From Cyanidiococcus yangmingshanensis (taxonomy: Eukaryota > Rhodophyta > Bangiophyceae > Cyanidiales > Cyanidiaceae): a DNA stretch of 64,000 nucleotides. The position numbers were made by a program, and so were the translations under genes. Shown piece by piece: positions 194 through 7,620 of the stretch. The notes beneath the pieces are model-generated. The model saw nothing but the letters and a program-made list of their open reading frames with translations, did no database searches and was not told where the DNA came from. The DNA lies in assembly GCA_013995675.1 (NCBI GenBank), contig VWRR01000018.1:124001-188000 (forward strand), written 5' to 3'. Numbering within the stretch: position 1 is the stretch's first letter; every line of letters begins with the position of its first letter.

Positions 194-791
194 ATGAGTC
201 AGCTGCGACGCCTGGGCCGGTCGCTTTTTAGTGGGCTCACGTACGTGCCGGTGGATCTACTTCATCCACGAGAACTTTTTTACGTTCGTGCCTGTTCAGG
301 GAGCTTCTATGCAGCCCACGTTGAACCCGGTAAGCACTGCAAAGGAAACTTTCAGCTCGAGTCGATCCAGCGGAGACATCGTTTTCGTGAGCCGTCTCTT
401 GCGTCATTTTTGGGACACGAAACGGGGAGAAGTTGTGGTTCTTCGCTCACCGGACCAAGGCCCTCGCAAAAGGCTTATCAAACGGGTCGTCGCCCTAGAA
501 GGCGACAGAATTTACAACTGCCGGACTGGAAAAGAAGTCGAAATACCCCGAGGGTGCTGCTGGATCGAGGGGGACAATCGAGCCCTGTCGCGAGACTCGG
601 CAAGTCATTATGGCCCTGTCCCACTAGGCCTTATAGAGGGGCGTGTGATTGCCATTGTGTGGCCGCCAGGACGTTGGCAAATGCTCTCGGCTCCCCAGAG
701 AACGGAATCTTCAGTAGACTCCGGACTAGGCTTGGAGTCAGAGTTGCCGAGCACAATAAGAGCGCTTGCGAAACCTACGCGTTCCAAATAG
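194..791 (+). CDS. IMP2: Mitochondrial inner membrane protease subunit 2 (IMP2), frame change near the start
   Basis: Serine/lysine-dyad signal peptidase (S26 family) that cleaves sorting signals of proteins in the mitochondrial inner membrane. The nucleophile lies in GASMQPTLNP and the general-base lysine in KRLIKRVVALEGD; the family box GDNRALSRDSASHYGPVP and the terminal VWPPGRW match yeast IMP2 very well. The ATG at 194 opens LRRLGRSLFSGLTYVPV, which matches the N-terminal membrane segment, but the catalytic part is in the next frame. The switch falls at the GG of 253-254: after VPV the product continues IYFIHENF, with exactly the yeast spacing to the active serine. In the catalytic frame no ATG lies upstream of the active site, so the shift is needed to make the protein. 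About 198 residues, normal for the family. Identity is firm; whether the extra base is real is open. Confidence 0.85.
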
Positions 792-1932: not shown

Positions 1933-3060
1933 ATGACGAACCGCTTGTTATATCTGGCCGCGATAGTCGCGGTCATAGCAGCCTTCGTGCTGCAGGGTAC
2001 TGCCGCGATGGACTTTAACGGAAAGTATATCAAGGACCAGAAGAACTGCTACAACGTCCAGAAGTGTATTAAGCAGGTGCGCAAGTGCGCTCAGTACGAG
2101 AAAGTTTGTACTGCTCCTCAGCAGAAGTGCATACAGCACGAGCTTATCTGTGTGAAGCAGGAGAACCAGTGCAAACAGTTCGAGCCTCAGTACCAAAACG
2201 TCAAGGTCTGCGTGCAATACGAGAAACAATGCATTCAGTGGAATTACAAAGATGAATGCCAGCAACAGTACGACCAGCAGAATAACTACTTCTGGGGCGT
2301 GCAGCGCTTTGATTACAAGAAGAAAGAGCCTGTGAAGCAGAAGTGCAAGAAAGTACAAAATGGCTGCGCGCAGTGGCAAGAGGACAAGAACAAGTGCGTG
2401 CAGTGGGGTGAACAACAACAGAAGATCGGTCAGAAATGCGCTGATTGGCAGCAGGTTTGCATCAAGACCAAGCCTGGAAAGTGCATCCAGTACGAGCAGG
2501 TTTGCAATAACTTCCAGCAGCGCTGCGCACAGTTTGTGAATGAGTGCCAGCAGTACAAGAATGAGATCATCTGCCCGGAGCCCAAGAAGCAACCGAAGAA
2601 GGATGTGAAGCAGGAATCGTATATGAAGAAGCAGGACTATGTGCAGCGTATGAACTACGAGAAGAAAAAGGAATACAATCAGAAAAATGTAGAATCCCAA
2701 CAGAAGAATGAGTGGTTCCAGCAGCCAAAGGAGCAGAAGCAGTACTACTGGCAGCCGAAGAAGAAGGACTATCAGAACCAGAATGACCAGAAGCAGTACT
2801 ACTGGCAGCCGAAGAAGAAGGACTATCAGAACCAGAATGACCAGAAGCAGTACTACTGGCAGCCGAAGAAGAAGGACTATCAGAACCAGAATGACCAGAA
2901 GCAGTACTACTGGCAGCCGAAGAAGAAGGACTATCAGAACCAGAATGACCAGAAGCAGTATTACTGGCAGCCAAAGAAGTACGACAACAAGAAGAAGAAT
3001 GATTTGTACGGGAAAAAGAAAGTGAACCCGTTTGTGCCTGAGAATAACTACTGGGTCTAA
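1933..3060 (+). CDS. Secreted Cys-heptad, Gln/Tyr/Lys-rich repeat protein A
   Basis: I do not recognise this family. The 375-residue product starts with a clear signal peptide (about residues 1-25, ending GTAA). It is followed by a region in which cysteines recur every seven residues with an aromatic or other bulky residue three places on, as in CAQYEKV and CVQYEKQ. A tyrosine/tryptophan-rich spacer follows, a second cysteine region, and then a cysteine-free tail of five near-identical 18-residue units (QKQYYWQPKKKDYQNQND). Glutamine, lysine, tyrosine and cysteine dominate. The next gene downstream is a paralogue: both share QWNYK followed by an acidic pair and CQQ, and a KxCKKVQxGC segment. 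Export, regular cysteines and tyrosine-rich repeats suggest a cross-linked structural role in an extracellular matrix or proteinaceous wall. That is inference. Intact single frame. Confidence 0.8.
   Translation: MTNRLLYLAAIVAVIAAFVLQGTAAMDFNGKYIKDQKNCYNVQKCIKQVRKCAQYEKVCTAPQQKCIQHELICVKQENQCKQFEPQYQNVKVCVQYEKQCIQWNYKDECQQQYDQQNNYFWGVQRFDYKKKEPVKQKCKKVQNGCAQWQEDKNKCVQWGEQQQKIGQKCADWQQVCIKTKPGKCIQYEQVCNNFQQRCAQFVNECQQYKNEIICPEPKKQPKKDVKQESYMKKQDYVQRMNYEKKKEYNQKNVESQQKNEWFQQPKEQKQYYWQPKKKDYQNQNDQKQYYWQPKKKDYQNQNDQKQYYWQPKKKDYQNQNDQKQYYWQPKKKDYQNQNDQKQYYWQPKKYDNKKKNDLYGKKKVNPFVPENNYWV
2734..3003 (+). repeat. Five tandem 54-bp coding repeats
   Basis: The unit begins CAGAAGCAGTACTACTGGCA and encodes QKQYYWQPKKKDYQNQND. 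Copies start at 2734, 2788, 2842, 2896 and 2950. The first four are almost identical at DNA level, including synonymous positions; the last diverges at its 3' end (KKYDNKKK). Such uniformity points to recent expansion or homogenisation by unequal exchange. Confidence 0.95.
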
Positions 3061-4108
3061 TTGATTCAGGCAGTTTAACGGGTGAAAATTAGCATTTAGG
3101 AATGTTCTGGAACGCTGGAACGCGATAATAGATCAGAGCCTGATCAATTATCTGGAGGGTTTATGATACGCCGCTAAAAATTCTGTCGTTATCGGGAGCG
3201 TTTCCCCTGTATCATTCAGGAGAAGGAATTCCCTCGGATCCCCGCGCCTTCACGAGCGGAGAGCGGGTCACTATACGACAGGCCGGCTCCTCGAAACTGA
3301 ATTTTATCCATCAGAGGATCTCATTGAATACCCACAGTCCAGAGAACTTGGCGACCGCAAAATCTCGCCTGGGCACGTATCTGCAGGATACCCAACGAAA
3401 CATCATATACTGCCGTTCAATGTTTTATGCTTATGCTAGTCACCTGCACGATATACGTAGCGCGCAATTAGAAGATATCATCTTGAGGCTTAGGTTTCAG
3501 CGCTCGGCGGTGCTTCGCAAAATTAGATGCATGGGCCGTGCAACCTCCCCGATGCTTCCAGATGAGACCATTCTCTGGTCGTCGACCACGACGGAATGCT
3601 GTACTGTACCGAGTAATGTCGCGGGTTCATCCCCTAATTTTCAATGATCTCCCGCAGAAATATCGACGGTCCCCGGAGAGGCGTCGCGATGTGCCGTCGG
3701 TGACCTCGCGCACCGAGCGCCCGGGGTCGTCGCGCGCTCCAGCACCACGACGGCGGCGACGCGCGGCGGACACGTGTCCGATTCGTCGCTATACACCACA
3801 ATGACGCGTGCAAGTCGCGCAGCCGATACGCGGGGATTCCAGATCTGGCACAGATGGGACACGACACCCGATTGTGTGATAATAGAAACGCTGCCGTGAT
3901 CGGTCGCCGCCTTGCCGGGAAACATGCAGAGCCGCACACGGACTTTTCATGGCGGGGGTGACGTGTCCCCGTCGGCGACGACGGCATGGCACCGCGAGCT
4001 TGCAGCAGGGGATGCATATCGCAAGTGTTTCTTGTTGTTGATCAGTCTGTGGGTAAAGTCTGAAGCATATTGACTTCTGCGTACCGCTAGAGCTACTTAT
4101 TCATTAAA
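3061..4108. other. Intergenic region between the two secreted paralogues
   Basis: About 1 kb without a supported gene. The half nearest protein B (about 3655-3990) is conspicuously GC- and CpG-rich and holds a perfect 14-bp palindrome (3767-3780) and a second CGTGTCC at 3962. It looks like a promoter island. Confidence 0.5.
3767..3780. promoter_or_regulatory. Perfect palindrome around CACGTG upstream of protein B
   Basis: CGGACACGTGTCCG reads the same on both strands and centres on a CACGTG G-box core, the usual target of bHLH and bZIP dimers. It lies about 330 bp upstream of the protein B start, inside a GC-rich island. The half-site CGTGTCC recurs at 3962 and upstream of the MYB gene (20747). 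Regulatory function is inferred. Confidence 0.4.
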
Positions 4109-5099
4109 ATGATCAAAAAATCCGCGTTGTGTTTCGTTGTCGCTCTCGTGCTGAGTCTCTTGGCGCCTATGCCGGCTGCACAGGCATGGTCGAATACCGC
4201 CGTAGACCAGCAAAACTGCTATCAGAAGCAGGTATGCGCCCAGTATGATAACCAGTGCGCTGGATATTCGAACGTCTGCCTGCAATGGGGCGAACAGTGC
4301 AAGCAATACGAACAGGTTTGCACGAACTGGGAGACCAAGTGCACTGCATATGAGGATGTGTATAAGACTACCCAAGTCTGTGCTCAGTATGCGCAGACCT
4401 GTGCGCAGTGGAACTACAAGGAAGACTGCCAGCAGGTTGAGCAGAAAGATACTCAGTACCTTGTCGCCGCACAGACGCCGGTGCCAAAGCAGAAGGATAT
4501 CAAGAAGCAGGAAGATCAGCAGAAGAAGAACGCGTATATCTGGAACCAGAACAGCTGGCGTTGGTCTAAAGACCAGCAGCAGATCCAGAAGAAGAAGGTT
4601 GTTGTAGAGACACCAGTGCCCCAGAAGACGTGCAAGAAAGTTCAGGCTGGATGCTGCGCGTTGGCAGCAGGACACATCGAAGTGTCAGCAATGGACGACG
4701 CACAAGCAGAGGATCGGCGTCCGGTGCGCCAGCAGCAGCCAGGTCTGCACCAACTACACTCAGGGCCAATGCGCTCAAAACGAACAGATTTGCCTCCAGT
4801 ACGGCCAGAAATGCACCGGTTACCAGCAGGTCTGCAAATCATATCAATGGCAGTGGGTATGCCAGCAGGTTCAGACTACTGAGCAGTACCAGAAGCAAGT
4901 CTATGTGAAGCAGGACCAGCAGAACTACCAGAAACAACAGTACTATCAGAAGAACCAGAAGGACCAGCAGAACTACCAGAAACAACAGTACTATCAGAAG
5001 AATCAGAAGGACCAGCAAAATCAGAAACAACAGTACTATCAGAAGAATCAGAAGGACCAGCAAAATCAGAACGACTGGCAAAATTCGTACTTCTGGTAA
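4109..5099 (+). CDS. Secreted Cys-heptad, Gln/Tyr-rich repeat protein B (paralogue of A), one frame change
   Basis: Tandem paralogue of the preceding secreted gene. It has a signal peptide (MIKKSALCFVVALVLSLL to AQA), then a strict run in which cysteine recurs every seven residues: CAQYDNQ, CAGYSNV, CLQWGEQ, CKQYEQV, CTNWETK. A spacer with two ETPVP/QTPVP-type segments and KTCKKVQAGC follows. At about 4654-4662 the frame must advance by one base (TT at 4661-4662 is the likely run); in the next frame the protein continues with QDTSKCQQW, QVCTNYTQGQCAQNEQIC and related cysteine motifs, then three Gln/Tyr/Lys repeats and stop. Without the change the product would end in about 75 unrelated residues. 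Joined length about 329 residues. Probably extracellular and structural like protein A; no known domain. Confidence 0.75.
4929..5066 (+). repeat. Three tandem 45/48-bp coding repeats in protein B
   Basis: Copies begin at 4929, 4977 and 5022 with CAGAAACAACAGTACTATCA and encode QKQQYYQKNQKDQQN, the first copy having one extra tyrosine codon. Nearly identical DNA indicates recent duplication, like the unrelated-length repeat in protein A. Confidence 0.9.
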
Positions 5100-5955: not shown

Positions 5956-7620
5956 TCAAGTGTGGGCGGAGTGTGGGCGGCTCCAGAGAACCCGCTTGAT
6001 CACCGAGCCATGGGCTCGCCAGGCGACCGAGGCCCAAATTAAACTGGTGACCAGCGTCCAGCCTATAAGCGTCGTCATTGCCAAAACATCAAGCCCCCGC
6101 GCAACAACCCATGATACCATGTAGTGAGAGACCATAGCCCATACTGCAGTGACCAGCAGTACGTTCGTCGCCGGCCAAAACGCACTTGGCATTCGGAAGT
6201 TGTGCAGATGCCTGTCGGTCCTGAATGCGTACCTAATCATCGCCGCGGCAAGTTCGGCACGTAGCAACATCGTTACGGCATTGTTTGCAATTAACAAAAG
6301 TGGGCTTCCGACAACAACGACTGCCCACCGGGCGCCCATAACGAATCCCATCGAGATGAACGCACTAACAGAAGCATGTAGAACGAGAATTCGAGACGGC
6401 AATCGAGGTAGGATCGCTGTCGTGGCGAACGCCTCGATTGTGCCGAGTAACGCTGGCGCGATCAACGAACGCAGGTACCAGGTCAAGAGCTGAGCTACTA
6501 ATGCGTCTTTTGGTGATGCTGCCAGGACCCAACGCTTTCCGTACACGACTTGCAGAAAAACCGGAACGTAAGTAGGGCCAACGCAGGCCAACAAAGATGC
6601 TATTAGAACAGCGCAAAGCCTCGCCTCCAGCGTGAAAACAAACGCCTCGCCAAAAGACGCCCGACTTTCCGTTTCCTGCAAACGGGCCGCCACAATATAC
6701 ACACTCTCCTCAAGCGGAAGGAAGAAATATCGAAGCACAAGCGAGGCCAGGTTCCCTGCCAACTTGTATGCTCCAACTTCTTCGATGCTCAAGCGATTAG
6801 ACAGGACAAAAAACAAATTTTCAGCGTCCGAGGCGAAGAACTTGAAAACAGCTTGAAGCGCTGCATGAGCCCACAATCGCCAACTAGACGAGCCCGCTTT
6901 CTGGCTGCGCTTGGGTTTCTCGGTGGGGAGTCGGCGCTTGGTGCAACGTCGCCAGGCTCGAGCCAAGACTGCTATACCGACAAGGCTCTGAGCAAACCAT
7001 CCCAGAGACATTCCAAGTGCGTCATCACCGGTCTTTTGCGCAATCCATAATGCGACGATGTTCTGGGCAAGCGCCGCAAGGCCGTCAGCCTGTGCCCGTC
7101 CAGCCAGTGCAGCTGAGTCTCCGTGTAGCAGGCATTGTAAATGTAGCCACTCGCCGAGAGACGCATCAAGTGTGGCCCCAATCCCCACAATAATGTATGC
7201 GACCTTCGAACGTCGGAAGCTGAGCATGGAAACACTCCAATTGATGTATCGAATAAAAACAAATGCCGTTCCTATGCACCAAAGAATATTGCACCAGAGC
7301 CAGTGCTGCCGCTGGGCGAGATGGGGCCTCTGTAATACCACGCGTCGCACAACCTCTCGAGCCGGCCAAAGCGCGATCGCAAACAGTAGGCCCAGGTAAG
7401 CATCCGAAAACGCAACAACTGCAGGTCCGTATCGACGCGCTATCAGGGTCCGCAGTCCAAAGCATAGCAGCTTACTCGTCAAGGACCAGCTAAGCGCTGC
7501 TCGAACGCTTGTGCTCGCAGCTACAGCCCCGGCACAGGAAACTGGTCGGGTCTGTTCCATAGCGGGCGTGTTCGAGCGCTTCCGCTGCCTCTTGTCTCCA
7601 TTGGTTTCCCGTTTTCCCAT
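5956..7620 (-). CDS. RFT1: RFT1-like multispanning ER protein (dolichol-linked oligosaccharide pathway)
   Basis: Polytopic ER membrane protein of the RFT1 family, required for translocation or handling of Man5GlcNAc2-dolichol in N-glycosylation. The N-terminal segment IARRYGPAVVAFSDAYLG followed by WPAREVVRRVVLQR corresponds to the family signature in which a short loop precedes an arginine-rich LSREAFR-type motif. Further family landmarks are GEWLHLQCLL and, in the second half, ENLFFVLSNRLSIEEVGAYK followed by FLPLEESVYIVAARLQE. Many hydrophobic segments span the whole length. The ATG at 7620 gives 554 residues, the usual size. It is divergent from the VOC gene. With ALG10 near the other end of the window it is one of two genes for lipid-linked oligosaccharide assembly here. 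Confidence 0.85.
   Translation of the reverse strand: MGKRETNGDKRQRKRSNTPAMEQTRPVSCAGAVAASTSVRAALSWSLTSKLLCFGLRTLIARRYGPAVVAFSDAYLGLLFAIALWPAREVVRRVVLQRPHLAQRQHWLWCNILWCIGTAFVFIRYINWSVSMLSFRRSKVAYIIVGIGATLDASLGEWLHLQCLLHGDSAALAGRAQADGLAALAQNIVALWIAQKTGDDALGMSLGWFAQSLVGIAVLARAWRRCTKRRLPTEKPKRSQKAGSSSWRLWAHAALQAVFKFFASDAENLFFVLSNRLSIEEVGAYKLAGNLASLVLRYFFLPLEESVYIVAARLQETESRASFGEAFVFTLEARLCAVLIASLLACVGPTYVPVFLQVVYGKRWVLAASPKDALVAQLLTWYLRSLIAPALLGTIEAFATTAILPRLPSRILVLHASVSAFISMGFVMGARWAVVVVGSPLLLIANNAVTMLLRAELAAAMIRYAFRTDRHLHNFRMPSAFWPATNVLLVTAVWAMVSHYMVSWVVARGLDVLAMTTLIGWTLVTSLIWASVAWRAHGSVIKRVLWSRPHSAHT

What the first reader, a model, noticed from the sequence alone, without database searches (positions are those of the whole stretch)
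1933..5099. Tandem secreted proteins with a cysteine at every seventh residue
Both proteins have a signal peptide and runs of CxxYxxx-type heptads (for example CAQYDNQ, CAGYSNV, CLQWGEQ, CKQYEQV). A seven-residue period puts the cysteines in a stripe on one helix face, which suggests inter-chain disulfide zippers. Combined with Tyr/Gln/Lys-rich C-terminal repeats they look like cross-linkable structural proteins. I know no named family with this pattern. Some Cyanidiophyceae have protein-rich walls, so a wall or matrix role is attractive.
Basis: partly seen in the sequence, partly recalled or inferred. Interest (0 to 1): 0.72.

Follow-up and report, generated by a model that had tools for sequence, protein, structure and literature searches.

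The report
Secreted cysteine-ladder proteins of acidophilic alga
A hot-spring red alga carries a small family of secreted-looking proteins with a fixed ladder of twenty cysteines and lysine-, tyrosine- and glutamine-rich tails, which makes them good candidates for building proteins of its acid-proof wall.

Summary
Gene 1 (1933-3060, 375 aa) has a signal-peptide-like start, 20 cysteines and Lys/Tyr/Gln-rich 18-residue repeats; 11 of its 19 Cys spacings are exactly 7 (0 of 20,000 shuffles reach that). Gene 2 (4109-5099) is not one open frame: it changes frame near 4650. The genome holds five family loci, two frame-broken. What is conserved is a fixed 20-cysteine scaffold (6,7,7,7,7,7,13,7,9 - linker - 6,10,13,7,8,7,7,7,9, with small changes), not a strict heptad. 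No Pfam or NCBIfam family passes its cut-off; no solved relative was found. The assembly and its lysyl oxidase match Cyanidiococcus yangmingshanensis, whose wall is thought to be rich in protein and whose lysyl oxidase has no named substrate in what I read. Archaeal proteins with similar heptads carry them mostly as twin CX6C inserts with even cysteine numbers, and one is modelled, at moderate confidence, as a two-helix hairpin. Secretion, wall location, disulfide pairing and cross-linking are inferred, not shown.

The parts
1933..3060 (+). Gene 1, 375-aa secreted-looking cysteine-ladder protein, intact frame
   Evidence: paralog searches; pN 0.34-0.43 against pS 0.68-0.94 with paralogs
1933..2007 (+). 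Signal-peptide-like start of gene 1 (cleavage place approximate)
   Evidence: hydropathy; cleavage by inspection, no SignalP
2047..2259 (+). N half of the Cys scaffold, C1-C10 (residues 39-109): spacings 6,7,7,7,7,7,13,7,9
2344..2574 (+). C half of the Cys scaffold, C11-C20 (residues 138-214): spacings 7,10,14,7,8,7,7,7,9
2734..2979 (+). Tail repeats of gene 1, 18-residue unit rich in Lys, Tyr, Gln, no Cys
   Evidence: TRF: period 54, 4.6 copies, 98% matches; tail composition
4109..4648 (+). Gene 2, first frame: signal-peptide-like start, N half of the scaffold (cysteines at residues 37-107)
   Evidence: the mechanical frame runs on to 4882 but leaves the family after about 4650
4662..5099 (+). 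Gene 2, second frame: C half of the scaffold (spacings 14,7,8,7,7,7,9), Gln/Lys/Tyr tail and stop
   Evidence: real decay or assembly indel not decided
4912..5062 (+). Tail repeats of gene 2, 16-residue unit rich in Gln, Lys, Tyr
   Evidence: TRF: period 48, 3.2 copies, 95% matches

Best explanation
These are secreted structural proteins of the extracellular matrix, most likely the protein-rich cell wall, of Cyanidiococcus yangmingshanensis or a very close strain. Each has a signal peptide, a rigid module of 20 cysteines that pair mainly inside the chain (probably in the ER, where an ERO1 gene is available) into disulfide-stapled antiparallel hairpins built from C-x2-[YWF]-x3 heptads, and a tail of very variable length, rich in Gln, Lys and Tyr, that is linked to other wall components. 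The wall-stage lysyl oxidase of the same genome is the most plausible linking enzyme. Shown: the sequence pattern, its conservation in five loci, constraint on the protein, and presence of LOX, FAS1 and ERO1 genes. Inferred: secretion, disulfide pairing, hairpin fold, wall location, cross-linking by LOX.
For: Five loci share the Cys scaffold; the broken paralog C still shows 7,7,7,7,7,13,7,9 and 13,7,8,7,7,7,9 in its two frames. Paralogs keep the protein while silent sites are near saturation (9 of 9 pairs). Signal-peptide-like starts in 5 of 5 loci; no N-glycosylation sequon in 3 of 3 intact copies; tails without Cys. Codons CAG, AAG and TGC are commoner than in the other 14 window frames of 300 aa or more (CAG 0.67-0.87 against 0.57; AAG 0.56-0.83 against 0.49; TGC 0.71-0.88 against 0.58), as in well expressed genes, though other codons vary. 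The genome has a single LOX match whose 25-residue signal, 219-aa length and a 19-residue peptide agree with what Tomo 2018 reports for the enzyme secreted by strain RK-1 (PMC6508830), and a single FAS1 match, as reported for Cc. yangmingshanensis (PMC13353863). That paper reports a walled diploid, LOX and FAS1 expressed mainly in it, loss of cellulose synthase, and quotes a wall of 50-55% protein in one species. Tomo 2018 writes that some wall proteins are likely cross-linked by LOXL and names none in the parts read. Hairpin: an archaeal protein with similar heptads is modelled as two helices with a turn (pLDDT 67.7); in an archaeal membrane-protein family the heptads are an optional insert, with an even cysteine number in 10 of 10 copies that have any.
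Against: No expression, proteome or localisation datum for these genes was seen; the data sets of PMC13353863 could not be opened. The wall-related secretory proteins that paper names are FAS1 and trefoil-like proteins, not these. AlphaFold on gene 1's Cys domain failed (mean pLDDT 41.6), so there is no fold for the algal proteins. The near-mirror symmetry of the spacings that would suit one long hairpin is not significant (permutation P = 0.12). Conserved Pro and Gly inside the heptad runs (C4-C5, C15-C16) argue against one unbroken helix. One archaeal relative of P0006 (L016) has seven cysteines in its heptad-like stretch, not an even number. The hairpin model is from a single sequence. Tyr and Asp codon choice in gene 2 frame A, and Tyr in paralog D, is not of the preferred kind. 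Animal LOX works near neutral pH (recalled); the alga grows at pH 1-3, and Tomo 2018 saw the protein in the medium only at pH 6. The C6 copy has a tail of only 17 residues with one Lys, so tail cross-linking cannot apply equally to all copies. Two of five loci are frame-broken.
Confidence: 0.45

Rival explanations
1. Inter-chain disulfide zipper: long helices with Cys at heptad position a and Tyr at d assemble side by side through disulfides between chains, giving fibres.
For: Spacing 7 far above chance; 31 of 42 units have an aromatic three residues after the Cys, as an a/d pattern would.
Against: Conserved off-beat spacings and Pro/Gly inside the runs; 20 cysteines in each of three intact modules; in an archaeal family similar heptads are short inserts with even cysteine numbers.
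Confidence: 0.2
2. Secreted but not structural: a soluble extracellular protein (acid or protease shield, surface coat, metal or toxin scavenger) held by disulfides, the tails only making it sticky.
For: No transmembrane or lipid-anchor-like C terminus by inspection; weak sub-threshold Pfam matches to Metallothio_6 (E 0.047), Somatomedin_B (0.012) and Paramecium_SA (0.055), none over the cut-off.
Against: Thiols are protonated at pH 1-3, so metal binding in the medium is unlikely (general chemistry); repeats and composition resemble insoluble structural proteins (judgement).
Confidence: 0.2
3. Gene 2 and paralog C are real, recently broken pseudogenes, so the family is shrinking in this strain.
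For: Each changes frame.
Against: Both keep the Cys register on both sides of the break, and both gene 2 pieces show amino-acid constraint; the conserved ERO1 gene of the same assembly is also spread over three frames, two pieces directly abutting, which suggests leftover indels in the assembly.
Confidence: 0.3
4. The algal family and the archaeal CxxY proteins are homologous, linked by gene transfer, rather than convergent.
For: The archaeal lipoprotein P0006 aligns to the C6 copy better than all 1000 shuffles that keep cysteines and heptad columns (score 139 against mean 101); E 2.6e-5 when searched in the algal genome.
Against: Against paralog D and gene 1 the same shuffles reach the score in 72 and 92 of 1000; the second archaeal insert (L017) is reached in 323-797 of 1000; no intermediate sequences were found.
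Confidence: 0.12

Closest known systems
Coccidian and Cryptosporidium oocyst wall proteins (tyrosine-rich gam56/gam82-like; cysteine-rich OWP/COWP)
   Same: Tyr-rich or Cys-rich structural proteins held by tyrosine links or disulfides in a resistant protein wall (PMC3261165, passages read).
   Different: No match to any named oocyst wall family in the Pfam scans (whether such a model is in the library was not checked); here Cys ladder and Lys/Tyr/Gln tail are in one protein and the main Cys step is 7. The COWP spacing (recalled, about 10-12) was not tested.
Twin CX9C (CHCH) and twin CX3C (small Tim) proteins
   Same: If the hairpin reading is right: cysteine pairs spaced along two antiparallel helices and joined by disulfides (PMC12114033, passages read).
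   Different: Main step is 7 (CX6C), 20 cysteines, signal-like start instead of the mitochondrial intermembrane space. NDUFB10 is listed there with CX6C-X29-CX11C.
Animal lysyl oxidase substrates (collagen, elastin)
   Same: Lys-containing extracellular structural proteins (inferred) in a genome with a secreted LOX.
   Different: No collagen- or elastin-like repeats by inspection; LOX action on these proteins is untested.
Paramecium surface antigen domain (PF01508) and Somatomedin_B (PF01033)
   Same: Extracellular families rich in cysteine; weak matches.
   Different: All matches under the curated cut-offs.

Membership tests
CHCH / twin CX9C proteins | Two pairs of cysteines with 10-residue steps | tested here: not met
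   One step of 10 in the 19 of each intact module; the main step is 7
CHCH / twin CX9C proteins | Antiparallel helix hairpin with nested disulfides | tested here: inconclusive
CHCH / twin CX9C proteins | Mitochondrial intermembrane space location | not testable with these tools
   The signal-peptide-like start argues for secretion
Paramecium_SA, Somatomedin_B, Metallothio_6 (Pfam) | Score over the curated cut-off | tested here: not met
   Best of the algal proteins 14.4, 16.3 and 14.6 bits against 21.2, 23.1 and 23
Cross-linked oocyst-wall-type structural proteins | Signal peptide, Tyr over 5%, Cys-rich | tested here: met
   Tyr 7.3-10.4% and Cys 5.3-9.0% in 3 of 3 intact copies; start judged by hydropathy only. 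Tyr over 5% is the yardstick of PMC3261165
Cross-linked oocyst-wall-type structural proteins | Found in the isolated wall; insoluble; dityrosine or disulfide links | not testable with these tools
   Needs wall proteomics
Substrates of algal lysyl oxidase | Lysines oxidised to allysine by LOX | not testable with these tools
   Only co-occurrence with one LOX gene was shown

The most novel reading that the evidence does not exclude
These proteins are a main protein component of the Cyanidiales wall and the missing substrates of its lysyl oxidase: rigid rods of stacked two-turn (CX6C) disulfide rungs, a further member of the CX3C/CX9C hairpin series, joined by covalently linked Lys/Tyr/Gln tails into an acid-proof protein wall that replaces cellulose.
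Probability: 0.22. Interest if true: 0.78.

Novelty: new variant of a known kind. Interest (0 to 1): 0.52.

Why it matters
The Cyanidiophyceae have lost cellulose synthase, and one wall was reported as 50-55% protein in 1968 (cited in PMC6508830 and PMC13353863). In the parts of those papers that I read, FAS1 and trefoil-like proteins are discussed, but no substrate is named for the lysyl oxidase that is expressed in the walled stage. This small gene family gives genes to test in an alga that now has transformation and a walled/naked life cycle. It also suggests a CX6C disulfide ladder as a way to keep a protein wall stable in hot acid.

Tried and rejected
AlphaFold of gene 1's Cys domain with gene 2's N half: mean pLDDT 41.6, discarded. 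The one-long-hairpin model from mirror symmetry of the spacings: permutation P 0.12, not used as evidence. Order-level duplication of N half and C half: 130 of 1000 column shuffles reach the score, so repeats of one heptad kind explain it. Tyrosinase in the genome: none found, but the control rang nowhere, so uninformative. Transglutaminase core: one match at C4:464022; its frame also matches Rad4 weakly, looks like peptide N-glycanase or a Rad4 relative (recalled), and its start is less hydrophobic (1.92 against 2.8-3.5 for the family), so it is a poor wall linker but not excluded. C18:131601 match of the archaeal query: frame without Cys heptads, dropped. Viral contigs: none of 118 candidates for the algal alignment and none of 33 for the archaeal protein confirmed; phages and plasmids: no match for the C6 copy. 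Genome contigs: 1 of 346 candidate stretches confirmed, the archaeal L014. Archaeal phylum search with P0006: 51 of 371 genomes at E <= 0.1, most of them weak and through the lipoprotein signal; of the 19 loci given (L016-L034), 4 (L016, L017, L018, L031) have two or more seven-steps with an aromatic at the fourth place. One search had read the minus-strand loci in a wrong frame; one search corrected that. In one search, 8 of 15 loci (L036, L041, L042, L045-L049) were read in a wrong frame; repeated correctly. Those 15 loci are 15 of the 23 match places, and L040, L041 and L042 are near-identical there, so the ten inserts are not ten independent cases. Foldseek for the archaeal model: no match at E <= 0.001. 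Shared promoter words: 3 eight-mers in at least 3 of 5 upstream regions against a shuffle mean of 0.7 and maximum of 3, not convincing. Related Cyanidioschyzon, Cyanidium and Galdieria genomes are not in the collections searched, so distribution is unknown. Paper searches behind 'not named in print': (open-licence papers only; papers seen only as listings unless said otherwise).
Full report
WHAT IS THERE. Gene 1 (1933-3060) is an intact frame of 375 codons. Gene 2 begins at 4109 and its last codon ends at 5099, but it is not one frame: similarity to the paralogs runs in one frame up to about 4513 and in another from about 4620 to 4844; the mechanical frame from 4109 ends at 4882. Both genes start with a hydrophobic, signal-peptide-like stretch (no dedicated predictor was available). 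Neither has a Pfam family over its cut-off; NCBIfam gives nothing near a cut-off; a phmmer search with gene 1 and a profile search of PDB sequences give one insignificant hit each (E 6.4 and 0.44).

IS IT CHANCE? Neighbouring cysteines are seven apart in 11 of 19 steps in gene 1; shuffling its Cys domain gives a mean of 1.07 and a maximum of 6 in 20,000. Paralog D has 11 of 20, the C6 copy 10 of 19, gene 2 frame A 6 of 11, frame B 4 of 7 (8 of 20,000 shuffles reach the last; none reach the others). Of 42 exact seven-spaced units, the third position is Gln in 25, the fourth is Tyr in 25 and Trp or Phe in 6 more. But 'every seventh' is too simple: in the three intact copies the spacing list is 6,7,7,7,7,7,13,7, then 9 (7 in D), a linker step of 26-58, then 4 to 7, 10, 13 or 14, and 7,8,7,7,7,9.

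THE FAMILY. Two searches of the whole 12,072,675-base, 20-contig assembly with different members find the same five loci (the tool calls its counts lower bounds): gene 1, gene 2, paralog D (L008:4157-5014 minus, intact 286 aa) and paralog C (L008, about 2447-3123 minus, frame-broken) on the same contig within about 13 kb, and one intact copy on contig 6 (222 aa). Identity to the C6 copy is 61% for D and 44% for gene 1. Non-synonymous differences (pN 0.20-0.43) are far below synonymous ones (pS 0.68-0.94, dS not finite in 8 of 9) in 9 of 9 pairs compared, including both gene 2 pieces but not paralog C; these are old duplicates kept as proteins. Shared architecture: signal-like start, ten-Cys half, linker usually with Trp and Arg residues (by inspection), ten-Cys half, a Gln/Lys/Tyr tail of 17, 55 and 161 residues in the intact copies, and a C terminus ending at or one residue past a Trp (by inspection). 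None of three intact copies has an N-glycosylation sequon.

FRAME BREAKS. Gene 2 and paralog C keep the Cys register on both sides of their breaks. The ERO1 gene of the same assembly is also split over three frames, two of the pieces abutting without a gap. Leftover assembly indels are therefore at least as likely as pseudogenes; a recent break cannot be excluded.

WHICH ORGANISM. The assembly (12.07 Mb, 20 contigs) fits Cyanidiococcus yangmingshanensis: 12.0 or 12.1 Mb, 20 contigs, 54.6% GC (PMC9812998 section 6; PMC13353863 table passage). It holds one LOX match and one FAS1 match, as stated for that species. The LOX frame contains a 219-aa protein with a 25-residue signal before Gln and the peptide PMLNYSIWDSAGNLVRSGK, as Tomo 2018 reports for the LOXL of strain RK-1, later renamed to this species. 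Which strain this is was not settled.

WHY A WALL PROTEIN. PMC13353863 (outline, section 7 part 1, section 16 and passages read) says these algae lost cellulose synthases, that a wall of 50-55% protein was reported in 1968 for a strain now of uncertain species, that diploids are walled and haploids naked, and that LOX and FAS1 are expressed mainly in diploids. Tomo 2018 (parts 1-2 of 4 and passages read) proposes that some wall proteins are cross-linked by LOXL. Neither text names a substrate in what I read. Secreted-looking proteins with 8.7-17.6% Lys, 7-10% Tyr, 19-29% Gln and 5-9% Cys in three intact copies are natural candidates. This is inference: expression data for these genes were not seen.

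ARCHAEAL KINSHIP. P0006's score against the C6 copy is above all 1000 column-preserving shuffles, but not against paralog D (72 of 1000 reach it) or gene 1 (92 of 1000); the L017 insert never stands out (323-797 of 1000). Convergence on the same beat is the safer reading.

CROSS-LINKING. Candidates in the genome: LOX yes; ERO1 yes, for disulfides; transglutaminase core one match, in a frame that looks like peptide N-glycanase or a Rad4 relative (recalled); tyrosinase search uninformative. PMC13353863 reports no class III peroxidases in this genus but two diploid-biased RBOH genes. Against LOX: the alga grows in very acid medium, and Tomo 2018 saw the enzyme in the medium only at pH 6; the C6 copy's tail has a single Lys.

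VERDICT. Real, conserved and unnamed in the libraries and open papers searched; a good candidate for an old open question, the identity of the wall proteins of these algae.

Noticed in passing
L014:4995-5228: Nanoarchaeota lipoprotein-like frame of 78 aa with C-x2-[YF]-x3 heptads and a lipobox-like VSGC, modelled as a helical hairpin; L016 is a likely archaeal relative around its turn.
   Followed up: partly
L035-L049: Archaeal membrane-protein family with an optional, often twin CX6C, insert between two strand-like segments (by inspection); even cysteine numbers in 10 of 10 inserts that have any.
   Followed up: partly
L051 (contig 4, 321587-322749 of the own genome): The ERO1 gene is spread over three frames, which hints at leftover indels in the assembly or unrecognised introns.
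   Followed up: partly
window 309-791: A signal peptidase S26-like gene (Pfam E 2.3e-16) lies upstream of gene 1 on the same strand.
   Followed up: no
window 5956-7620, minus strand: Rft1-like gene (Pfam E 2.5e-33), downstream neighbour of gene 2.
   Followed up: no
L009:8418-8978: Globin-like frame about 13.5 kb before gene 1 on the same contig (Pfam E 2.2e-14).
   Followed up: no
C termini of all five family loci: The chains end at or one residue past a Trp, usually in an aromatic ending such as YW or FW; purpose unknown.
   Followed up: no
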